NCBI RefSeq assembly: GCF_001559775.1
Contig: NZ_LOHX01000152.1
Coordinates: 62,001-126,000 of the forward strand
DNA length: 64,000 nucleotides
Origin: Streptobacillus felis
Lineage (GTDB): Bacteria > Fusobacteriota > Fusobacteriia > Fusobacteriales > Leptotrichiaceae
Reading direction: 5' to 3'
The notes below the pieces were generated by a model that made no database searches, was not told the DNA's origin, and saw only the letters and a program-made list of their open reading frames with translations. Below are positions 19,645 through 22,037 of the stretch, in pieces. A program made the translations under genes and the position numbers. The number at the start of each line of letters is the position of its first letter. Positions within the stretch are counted from its first letter, which is position 1.

Positions 19645-19673
19645 TTGCAATTATATAGAAATTAGAGTATAAT
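19645..19673 (+). promoter_or_regulatory. Promoter of the small RNA candidate
   Basis: TTGCAA (19645-19650), exactly 17 bp, TATAAT (19668-19673). Predicted start is near G19680, at the first base of a hairpin. No open reading frame follows before a strong terminator. Confidence 0.75.
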
Positions 19674-19679
19674 AACTTT

Positions 19680-19753
19680 GACTAACATAGCGTTAGTCAA
19701 CCTCAATTAACCCCCCCTTTAAGGGTTACCCGGCAGGGTAACTCTTTTTTTTT
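19680..19753 (+). ncRNA. Small RNA candidate, about 74 nt
   Basis: An autonomous transcript is predicted between the promoter at 19645-19673 and the terminator ending at 19753. A 5' hairpin (GACTAAC / GTTAGTC, loop ATAGC, 19680-19698) and the 3' terminator hairpin flank a single-stranded C-rich stretch with CCTC (19701-19704) and seven Cs (19711-19717). Such CU-rich segments in other small RNAs pair with ribosome-binding sites. TAACCC (19708-19713) could also pair with GGGTTA (19723-19728) and disrupt the terminator, which an attenuator would do. No start codon with a ribosome site is present. I do not recognise the family. Confidence 0.6.
19722..19753 (+). terminator. Terminator of the small RNA candidate
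   Basis: 10-bp stem AGGGTTACCC / GGGTAACTCT (one G-T pair) with a GGCA loop, merging into a run of nine Ts. The remaining bases 19754-19862 are AT-rich and I see no feature in them. Confidence 0.88.
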
Positions 19754-19862: not shown

Positions 19863-19891
19863 TTGACAAAAAAACAGAAGTAAGGTATAAT
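19863..19891 (+). promoter_or_regulatory. Consensus promoter of the outer-membrane protein gene
   Basis: TTGACA (19863-19868), 17-bp spacer, TATAAT (19886-19891): both hexamers match consensus, consistent with a very abundant product. The leader of about 37 bases carries AGGAGG just before the ATG at 19935. Confidence 0.9.
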
Positions 19892-19934: not shown

Positions 19935-22037
19935 ATGAAAAAAATCTTATTAGGAGTTATAGCATTAACTTCTGCTGCATCTTTTGGTGCTAAATATGAA
20001 CACTTACATGGTTACTTAGAATTAGAAGGTAAAGCTTCTGTTGAAAAACCAGTAACTTATGAAGAAGTAGATGGAGAAGTAAAAGTTAAAGATTTAGGTT
20101 CTCAAGAAGATGTAACTTATAAATTAGGTGCAAAAGGTGACTTAGGTGTATTTATGCACAAAGATAAAGAAGTATTTGCATTTATAGGAACAAACTTAAG
20201 TGGAACTAAAAAAGGTCAAGAAGATCTAGCATTTAATCAAAAAACTCCATATCATTTTGGATTAAGATGGGATTCTGACATAATTGATACATTTAATGTA
20301 CAATTAACTGCAGCTCACAGAAGAGGTGGAGAAGGAATTGCATGGGTTGAGAAAACTAAATTAAATGATGAAAAAGAAAAAGTACACAACGTAAATGGAA
20401 TCAAATACGCAGTTGAAAAACACTTAGGAGCTAAAGGTAAAGAAACTAAAGCAACTACAGATCAAGGATACAAATTAAGACCAGAAGATACATTCTTATT
20501 ATCAGGTGTATTAAATGGTAAAATTTACAACAACTTTGAATTAACAGTAGCTGGATTATATAACTCAGCTGATTTCAAAGATGGTACACATGAATTAGAA
20601 ACTTATGTTAAAACTAATGGAAATTTAAGAGAAAACGTAAGAATAGCTAATGCTGAAATCAAACATACTTTAAACAGTGCTAACTATGATAGAATAGGTA
20701 AATTATATGGAGACGTTAAAGTTGAAACTAAAGCAAGCGATGTTGTTGAATTAACTAACGAAGCTAAATTTACTTTAGATAGCATCTTAAAAGGTCAAGA
20801 AAGAAAAACTAAAGTTGAAGTATTAAACCACGGTAAATATACTGGAATCAAAAATGTTGAGTTAAGAGGAGATGTAAACTATACTTTAGGAATTAAAGAA
20901 ACAGCAGCAACTGAATTAACTCACGAACCAGAAGCTAAATTAGGAATTACTTTCAAACCAGTAGCTGGTTTAACTGTAAGTTCTGATAATACAAACAAAG
21001 TTACTTATAAACATGAAGTAGGTCAAGCAGGAACTGAATTTAAAAACAACTTTAAAACTACAAACAAAATTATGTACAATGTTGCTAAAGGTGTAGATTT
21101 ACATACATTAGCAGAATACAAATTAGAATCTAACTTATTAAGCAATGCTTCAGACCCTAAACATTCACATGCTGTATTAGCAGGTGCTGGATTAAATGCT
21201 AACACAGAAGTAGCAGGAGCTAAAGTAGAATCTTCATTAGAAGGAAGATACTTATTCAATGCTAAATCTAAAGATGCAAATAAAGAATTCAGACATCAAG
21301 GATTTGTATGGTCAGAAAATAAAGTATCATATGATATTAACGATAACAACAAATTAAGTGGAAAAGTTAATTTATATAACTATATTAACTTATCGACTAA
21401 AGATGATAACGGTAAACATAAATTAGATAAAGCAAAAGATTTTGGTGATGTATTCTTAGCAAACGTTGCTGTTGATTATACTAACATGACAGGGAAATTT
21501 ACTAACAAAGTTTATGTAGATGCTAAATATGGACTAGAAGCTGAATTAAAAGCTAAAGAAATTAAACAAGGTGTTATAGTTGGGTTTGGTGGAGAAACTT
21601 CATTCAAAGCTAGTGAAAATGTTGATGTAATCTTTACATTAGATAATGAATATACATTAAATGGATTAAATGGAGATGTTCATGGAGTTTATGTAGATTA
21701 CATTAAAGATGCATCTAATTATCAAGAAAACGTTCATGCATATGCTGCTGATAAATATGATGCTTCTAAACAACATGATTTAAGAAAAGCTAAAGACACA
21801 ATTAAAGATTTAACTGATGGTGCTTTACAAACTAAAGAACAATTAGAAGCTGTTAAACATGATTTATCAGTATCACCTAAATTAACAACTAAATTTACTT
21901 ATGTAGATGGTAGATTAGTAGTTAAACCATGGATAGGTGCTGGATTTGACTTTAATAACAGAGGAACTGAAAAAGAAGGATTTGCTTTAAGAAAAATAAG
22001 TGGAAATGCTGGAGTAAACGTTAAATATACTTGGTAA
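19935..22037 (+). CDS. Major outer-membrane beta-barrel protein (porin-like)
   Basis: A 700-residue protein with a signal peptide (MKKILLGVIALTSAASFGA) and alternating polar/hydrophobic strands throughout (for example LHGYLELEGKASV near the N-terminus and GNAGVNVKYTW at the end). A terminal aromatic residue is the usual signal for BAM-assisted outer-membrane insertion. It is Lys/Glu/Asn rich and has no mature cysteine visible. The consensus promoter, strong ribosome site and frequent AAC, TTC and GAC codons point to high expression. It resembles large Fusobacteriota outer-membrane proteins, but I cannot assign a transported substrate. It is monocistronic, bounded by a terminator on each side. 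Confidence 0.82.
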   Translation: MKKILLGVIALTSAASFGAKYEHLHGYLELEGKASVEKPVTYEEVDGEVKVKDLGSQEDVTYKLGAKGDLGVFMHKDKEVFAFIGTNLSGTKKGQEDLAFNQKTPYHFGLRWDSDIIDTFNVQLTAAHRRGGEGIAWVEKTKLNDEKEKVHNVNGIKYAVEKHLGAKGKETKATTDQGYKLRPEDTFLLSGVLNGKIYNNFELTVAGLYNSADFKDGTHELETYVKTNGNLRENVRIANAEIKHTLNSANYDRIGKLYGDVKVETKASDVVELTNEAKFTLDSILKGQERKTKVEVLNHGKYTGIKNVELRGDVNYTLGIKETAATELTHEPEAKLGITFKPVAGLTVSSDNTNKVTYKHEVGQAGTEFKNNFKTTNKIMYNVAKGVDLHTLAEYKLESNLLSNASDPKHSHAVLAGAGLNANTEVAGAKVESSLEGRYLFNAKSKDANKEFRHQGFVWSENKVSYDINDNNKLSGKVNLYNYINLSTKDDNGKHKLDKAKDFGDVFLANVAVDYTNMTGKFTNKVYVDAKYGLEAELKAKEIKQGVIVGFGGETSFKASENVDVIFTLDNEYTLNGLNGDVHGVYVDYIKDASNYQENVHAYAADKYDASKQHDLRKAKDTIKDLTDGALQTKEQLEAVKHDLSVSPKLTTKFTYVDGRLVVKPWIGAGFDFNNRGTEKEGFALRKISGNAGVNVKYTW

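What the first reader, a model, noticed from the sequence alone, without database searches (positions are those of the whole stretch)
19645..19753. Free-standing small RNA of about 74 nt upstream of the major outer-membrane protein gene
Seen: a near-consensus promoter with 17-bp spacing, a predicted start at the first base of a hairpin, an unpaired CCTC and C7 stretch, and a strong terminator, all within 110 bases and with no coding potential. The downstream outer-membrane protein gene has a separate consensus promoter. CCTC-AATT in the RNA can pair with the GAGG and AATT around that gene's ribosome site (4+4 with a two-base bulge). Known: C/U-rich loops of small RNAs commonly block ribosome sites. 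Inference: a regulator of envelope proteins.
Basis: partly seen in the sequence, partly recalled or inferred. Interest (0 to 1): 0.65.

Follow-up and report, generated by a model that had tools for sequence, protein, structure and literature searches.

The report
Conserved DNA-uptake-silencing small RNA candidate
A roughly 74-letter RNA beside an outer-membrane protein gene has kept an identical 22-letter core across a whole bacterial family, and that core matches the ribosome sites of DNA-uptake pilus genes and a secreted nuclease-like gene better than it matches its neighbour, so it is probably a family-wide switch for those genes.

Summary
Window 19680-19753 is a free-standing small-RNA gene: promoter, 5' hairpin, open C-rich core, terminator. 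The 22-nt core (19699-19720, AACCTCAATTAACCCCCCCTTT) occurs once per genome in 27 of 33 genomes of the family (named relatives: Streptobacillus, Leptotrichia, Sebaldella, other Leptotrichiaceae). It is invariant but for one C in one genome, while both flanking stems change sequence and keep pairing. No other family of the order has it within 2 mismatches, and Rfam has no model for it.
The gene moved next to the outer-membrane protein gene only in Streptobacillus. That protein was found in no other genus, and its mRNA pairs with the core worse than 98% of shuffled cores.
The core instead pairs strongly with the ribosome sites of a secreted nuclease/phosphatase-like gene. This held in genera not used to find it and failed in three genomes lacking the RNA. 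It also pairs with type IV pilus genes (9 of 28 unselected leaders at or below -14 kcal/mol, against 2 of 163 neighbouring genes, p=4e-7) and with dprA in two genera.
Best reading: a trans-acting sRNA that represses DNA-uptake/pilus genes, working like Legionella RocR with a FoxI/RoxS-like C-rich seed. Expression and regulation are untested.

The parts
19645..19673 (+). sigma-70-type promoter of the sRNA (TTGCAA-17-TATAAT)
   Evidence: recurs in all four Streptobacillus genomes
19680..19753 (+). small RNA, about 74 nt
   Evidence: fold z -5.1; 4/4 genus and 27/33 family genomes; transcription itself not shown
19680..19698 (+). 5' hairpin GACTAAC-ATAGC-GTTAGTC
   Evidence: sequence replaced in other genera (AGATC..GATCT) with pairing kept
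19699..19720 (+). single-stranded core AACCTCAATTAACCCCCCCTTT, the proposed seed (modules ACCTC and TAACCCCCCCTTT)
   Evidence: same in 27 genomes of 9 genera except one C fewer in G007; unpaired in all 27 predicted folds apart from its edges
19721..19753 (+). intrinsic terminator with 9-T tail
   Evidence: 6 of 7 pairs show two-sided changes across the family
19863..19891 (+). separate promoter of the downstream gene (neighbour, not part of the sRNA)
   Evidence: 12/12 match to TTGACA-17-TATAAT
19935..22037 (+). outer-membrane protein gene, 700 aa: neighbour and rejected target
   Evidence: found only in the four Streptobacillus genomes; no pairing above chance

Best explanation
The locus encodes a trans-acting base-pairing sRNA of the family Leptotrichiaceae. 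Its 5' hairpin and terminator protect the ends and leave a 22-nt core single-stranded. The core pairs with G-rich Shine-Dalgarno regions (C7 plus UUU with AAAGGGGG; CCUCAAUUAACCC with GGGUUAAUUGAGG) and so should block ribosome binding. The conserved predicted targets are a secreted nuclease/phosphatase-like (EEP) protein, type IV pilus genes (pilC, pilM, pilQ, pilins) and dprA, with comM, a ComEA-like gene and nrdF as weaker candidates. The RNA would therefore restrain DNA uptake and pilus assembly. Shown here: the gene, its structure, its conservation, and the statistical excess of pairing. Inferred: that it is transcribed, that pairing happens in cells, that the effect is repression, and what signal controls it.
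For: Core conserved in 27/33 genomes, one copy each, in 9 genera; hairpin - open core - terminator in all 27 folds; terminator covaries. EEP leaders: -20 to -29 kcal/mol in g3, g4, g9 (sRNA-bearing), g10 and all but one g6 genome (G008 -11.8), -17.9 in g7, -13 to -18 in Streptobacillus; 306 background leaders average -7.7 (sd 2.6), 1% quantile -14.2; g1, g7, g9 and g10 were not used to find this target; three genomes without the sRNA give -8 to -11. Unselected type IV pilus leaders: 9/28 at or below -14 vs 2/163 neighbours (p=4e-7); a 16S anti-SD control shows no difference (p=0.73); 0/100 shuffled cores match the shift. pilC -27.2 (G013), -26.5 (G024), -19.7 (G010); dprA -22.4 (G013), -24.3 (G021). 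Pfam confirms T2SSF, Secretin, DNA_processg_A, N_methyl, HHH_3.
Against: No expression data. Duplex energies ignore mRNA structure, and start codons were chosen by rule. Targets were first met in pattern searches, so only part of the support is out of sample. Sebaldella shows little pilus enrichment (1/7). In the window's own genome the EEP pairing is weak (-13.3) and no gene in the window is a strong target. Full-length complementary sites are not in excess genome-wide. The DNA-uptake theme was recognised after the fact.
Confidence: 0.58

Rival explanations
1. A trans-acting C-rich sRNA whose main job is envelope-protein control, as FoxI does in Fusobacterium nucleatum; the pilus pairing would be a by-product of G-run ribosome sites.
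For: FoxI uses a C stretch in a long linear region and represses envelope proteins (PMC11005410). In Streptobacillus AAGGGGG-ATG sites exceed the reversed-pattern control in two of three genomes (20 vs 4; 11 vs 2; 13 vs 8) and include a YadA-like surface protein.
Against: No excess of signal-peptide proteins among AAGGGGG leaders (14/68 vs 70/277); neighbour outer-membrane protein not a target; the pilus shift is absent in an anti-SD control and in shuffled cores.
Confidence: 0.15
2. The core binds a protein or another RNA (sponge or decoy) rather than mRNAs.
For: 22 nt almost without change across a family is stricter than many seeds; other C-rich sRNAs are themselves controlled by sponges (RosA and RoxS, PMC8216469).
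Against: Conserved complementarity in mRNA leaders that differ in sequence between genera.
Confidence: 0.12
3. A cis-acting leader or attenuator of the downstream gene.
For: The RNA lies upstream of a same-strand gene in every context examined; several Leptotrichia genomes show no clear promoter before that gene.
Against: The downstream gene changes between genera; consensus promoters follow the terminator in Streptobacillus, and promoter-like sequences in Sebaldella, G007 and G008; the Sebaldella paralogues seen in G028 and G030 have a convergent gene downstream; no conserved antiterminator pairing by inspection.
Confidence: 0.06
4. Only the terminator of the upstream operon plus a chance promoter.
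For: It follows a gene on the same strand at about 70 nt; promoter matches alone are at chance level.
Against: An invariant unpaired core with varying stems across 9 genera does not fit a plain terminator.
Confidence: 0.02

Closest known systems
FoxI and FoxJ sRNAs of Fusobacterium nucleatum
   Same: Same phylum; poly-C seed (in FoxI in a long linear stretch); predicted to act at ribosome sites
   Different: FoxI and FoxJ are sigma-E dependent and repress fomA (PMC11005410). Here promoters are TATAAT type, the core is absent within 2 mismatches from the other families of the order, and the predicted targets are pilus/DNA-uptake genes.
RocR sRNA of Legionella pneumophila
   Same: One sRNA pairing with 5' regions of several DNA-uptake mRNAs (PMC7973641 abstract)
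   Different: No sequence relation known; RocR works with the FinO-domain chaperone RocC; different phylum; regulation here is only predicted
C-rich-region sRNAs of Firmicutes (RoxS, FsrA, CsfG; RsaE)
   Same: C-rich regions that pair with mRNA targets, often at ribosome sites (PMC8216469)
   Different: No Rfam match; different phylum; a single 22-nt invariant core

Membership tests
FoxI/FoxJ sRNAs | C-stretch seed in an unpaired region | tested here: met
FoxI/FoxJ sRNAs | sigma-E dependent promoter | tested here: inconclusive
   TATAAT-type -10 in all 27 genomes by inspection; the sigma-E motif is not written out in the held paper
FoxI/FoxJ sRNAs | sequence homology to FoxI | tested here: inconclusive
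   no core within 2 mismatches in the other families of the order; only weak covariance-model matches there; FoxI sequence not held and genomes unnamed
FoxI/FoxJ sRNAs | repression of FomA or a major envelope protein | not testable with these tools
   needs experiment; pairing to the local outer-membrane protein is below chance
RocR-type competence silencer | pairs with 5' regions of several DNA-uptake mRNAs | tested here: met
   in silico only: pilC, pilM, pilins, dprA, EEP
RocR-type competence silencer | FinO-domain chaperone partner | not tested
   no search made for a FinO/ProQ-domain protein
Firmicute C-rich sRNAs (RsaE/RoxS) | match to an Rfam family | tested here: not met
   no match at gathering threshold in the window and none at E up to 1 over the sRNA
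trans-acting bacterial sRNA (general) | own promoter, terminator, no ORF, conserved open seed | tested here: met

The most novel reading that the evidence does not exclude
A family-wide, previously undescribed sRNA, with one almost invariant 22-nt core, is a master post-transcriptional silencer of natural transformation and type IV pili in Leptotrichiaceae. Its targets keep complementarity through different sequences in different genera. In most genera it would be controlled by a response regulator binding tandem TTTAAT boxes, a control lost when the gene moved in Streptobacillus.
Probability: 0.4. Interest if true: 0.75.

Novelty: new member of a known kind. Interest (0 to 1): 0.58.

Why it matters
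It gives Leptotrichiaceae, for which the literature searches found no described sRNA, a conserved sRNA with a testable target list. It suggests that silencing of DNA uptake by a multi-target sRNA evolved independently in a phylum reported to lack common chaperones such as Hfq and ProQ (said of F. nucleatum in PMC11005410), and that C-run sRNAs are a recurrent solution in low-G+C bacteria.

Tried and rejected
Outer-membrane protein as target: rejected. Full-length complementary target sites: no genome-wide excess over the reversed-pattern control, although recurrent members led to the real candidates. Signal-peptide enrichment among AAGGGGG leaders: none. Conserved pairing with neighbouring genes: none overall; rlpA leaders in Sebaldella and G007 carry AAUUGGAGGUU. 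Pho link: one genome has pst/phoU genes nearby, the apparent others were unrelated ABC genes. Promoter-box regulon: the pattern finds mainly the sRNA promoters themselves. FoxI homologue in the other families: none convincing. Viral contigs and plasmids: no match. Exact core match in a Vulcanisaeta record: judged chance. Prior-art check: no paper found; a survey that scanned Leptotrichia buccalis lists 10 unnamed sRNA candidates whose supplement I could not read (PMC11109978).

Full report
OBSERVATION. The promoter is TTGCAA-17-TATAAT, and the start falls on the first base of the hairpin. The RNA folds as hairpin, open C-rich core and terminator at -25.1 kcal/mol, against -12.2 for shuffles (z -5.1, 0/200). 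The promoter match alone is not above chance. Conservation is what makes the case. There is no ORF of 60 aa or more, no Rfam match and no tRNA.

CONSERVATION. All four genomes of the genus carry the RNA. A 22-nt core, AACCTCAATTAACCCCCCCTTT, occurs exactly once per genome in 27 of 33 genomes of the family. It is absent within 2 mismatches from the other 63 genomes of the order. One genome, G007, has one C fewer. Named matches are Streptobacillus notomytis, Leptotrichia, Sebaldella and other Leptotrichiaceae, so I take the family to be Leptotrichiaceae and the window's genus to be Streptobacillus. The handles themselves are unnamed. On genus counts: (BLAST, E up to 1) tallied 9 of 11 genera and (pattern) tallied 8 of 27 in the order; the extra one is a chance terminator match in g11, so the strict count of genera with the core is 8 (g1, g3, g4, g5, g6, g7, g9, g10). 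Where other sections of this report say 9 genera, or eight further genera besides Streptobacillus, read 8 and seven.

STRUCTURE ACROSS THE FAMILY. Around the fixed core both stems are different sequences in different genera: GACTAAC/GTTAGTC in Streptobacillus, AGATC/GATCT elsewhere, with several terminator sequences. All 27 fold alike, with the core open apart from its edges. In the model alignment 6 of 7 terminator pairs have two-sided changes; the 5' hairpin pairs are undercounted because that hairpin differs in length and register. A fixed open stretch between changing stems is the mark of a seed.

LOCATION AND PROMOTER. In the other genera the gene lies upstream of an rlpA-like/fabG block, usually beside argS (gene names by reading the proteins). 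In Streptobacillus it sits next to the outer-membrane protein gene, and all four species keep that arrangement. Most other genera have tandem TTTAAT boxes 11 bp apart, at a fixed distance from an extended -10. That looks like response-regulator control and is an inference. Streptobacillus has a TTGCAA -35 instead.

THE PROPOSED TARGET FAILS. The outer-membrane protein was found only in Streptobacillus. Its leader pairs with the core at -6.2 kcal/mol, worse than 98% of shuffled cores; the relative G001 is similar at -7.3, worse than 97.5%.

A BETTER TARGET. Recurrent complementary sites led to a secreted lipoprotein with weak, below-threshold similarity to the endonuclease/exonuclease/phosphatase family. 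Its ribosome site reads AAGGGGUUGAUUGAG-AUG in Leptotrichia, with close variants in two other genera: 13 contiguous pairs, about -22 kcal/mol. Orthologues in genera not used to find it have different leader sequences but keep strong pairing: -20.8 and -21.8 (g9), -17.9 (g7), -23.5 to -28.9 (Sebaldella), and -13.3 to -17.9 (Streptobacillus). 306 background leaders average -7.7 with sd 2.6. Three genomes without the sRNA give -8.4 to -11.3. One Leptotrichia, G008, is weak (-11.8). For G021 (g7) the rule picked a wrong start and gave -10.9; the start next to the conserved G-run gives -17.9.

A DNA-UPTAKE SET. Leaders with AAGGGGG before ATG include pilQ, pilC, pilins, dprA, comM, a ComEA-like HHH protein, ssb, recA, ruvA, priA and xseA; Pfam confirms the main ones, the rest are my reading of the sequences. 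I then tested whole type IV pilus clusters, leaving out the genes that had led me there. 9 of 28 leaders reach -14 kcal/mol, against 2 of 163 other genes in the fetched regions, with the previously known hits left out (p=4e-7). A 16S anti-SD control shows no difference (p=0.73), so this is not simply strong ribosome sites. None of 100 shuffled cores gives the same shift. pilC stands out: -27.2, -26.5 and -19.7 in three genomes of two genera. dprA is -22.4 and -24.3 in two genera. nrdF carries a 10-12-nt match about 45-60 nt upstream of its start in three genomes of two genera. The shift is clear in Leptotrichia and g9 and not in Sebaldella.

MECHANISM. Most likely the RNA pairs through its core with G-rich ribosome sites and blocks translation of secreted nuclease-like, pilus and DNA-processing proteins. 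Transcription, pairing in cells and direction of effect are not shown.

COMPARISON. It works like RocR of Legionella (target class; PMC7973641) and like FoxI/FoxJ and RoxS/RsaE (C-rich seed; PMC11005410, PMC8216469). It matches none of these by any sequence test I could run. It is filed as a new member of the known kind 'trans-acting C-rich sRNA', with a predicted regulon that would be new for the phylum as far as the searched literature shows.

LIMITS. Energies ignore mRNA structure. Start codons were chosen by rule. The functional theme was recognised after seeing hits, although the pilus and EEP tests used genes or genera outside the selection.

Noticed in passing
L117 (G028), L118 (G030), L119 (G027): Sebaldella-type genomes carry a second related sRNA gene with AACCTCATAACCCCCCCTTT: both modules kept, linker shortened, and a 5' stem that can cover CCTC.
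   Followed up: partly
L348, L349, L350, L351: A third sRNA type in Sebaldella-like genomes: TACCAATAAAGAATATTTTTCTTCATAACCCCCC followed by varying terminators, with a TATAAT-like box upstream.
   Followed up: partly
window 19935-22037; G001:C1:952173-953441, 1049404-1051421 and others: The outer-membrane protein has many partial copies lacking ends in G001 and G002, beside one full copy downstream of the sRNA; this could be a gene-conversion reservoir.
   Followed up: no
L361, L362, L371, L372: Genes that look phage-derived in Leptotrichia carry AGGGTTAATTGAGG-like sites, 11-12 nt complementary to the sRNA core, in their leaders.
   Followed up: no
L278, L280, L274: A lipoprotein gene in several Leptotrichia has a promoter resembling the sRNA promoter boxes (TTTAAT plus TGTATAAT), a possible co-regulated gene.
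   Followed up: no
L292 (G040), L294 (G046), L120 (G035): In the order's largest other family, genus g13 genomes have intergenic C-runs before a terminator, candidates for FoxI-like sRNAs.
   Followed up: no
G000:C152:44620-45387: The EEP-family orthologue of the window's own genome lies on the same contig about 17 kb before the window start; pairing with the sRNA is modest (-13.3 kcal/mol).
   Followed up: yes
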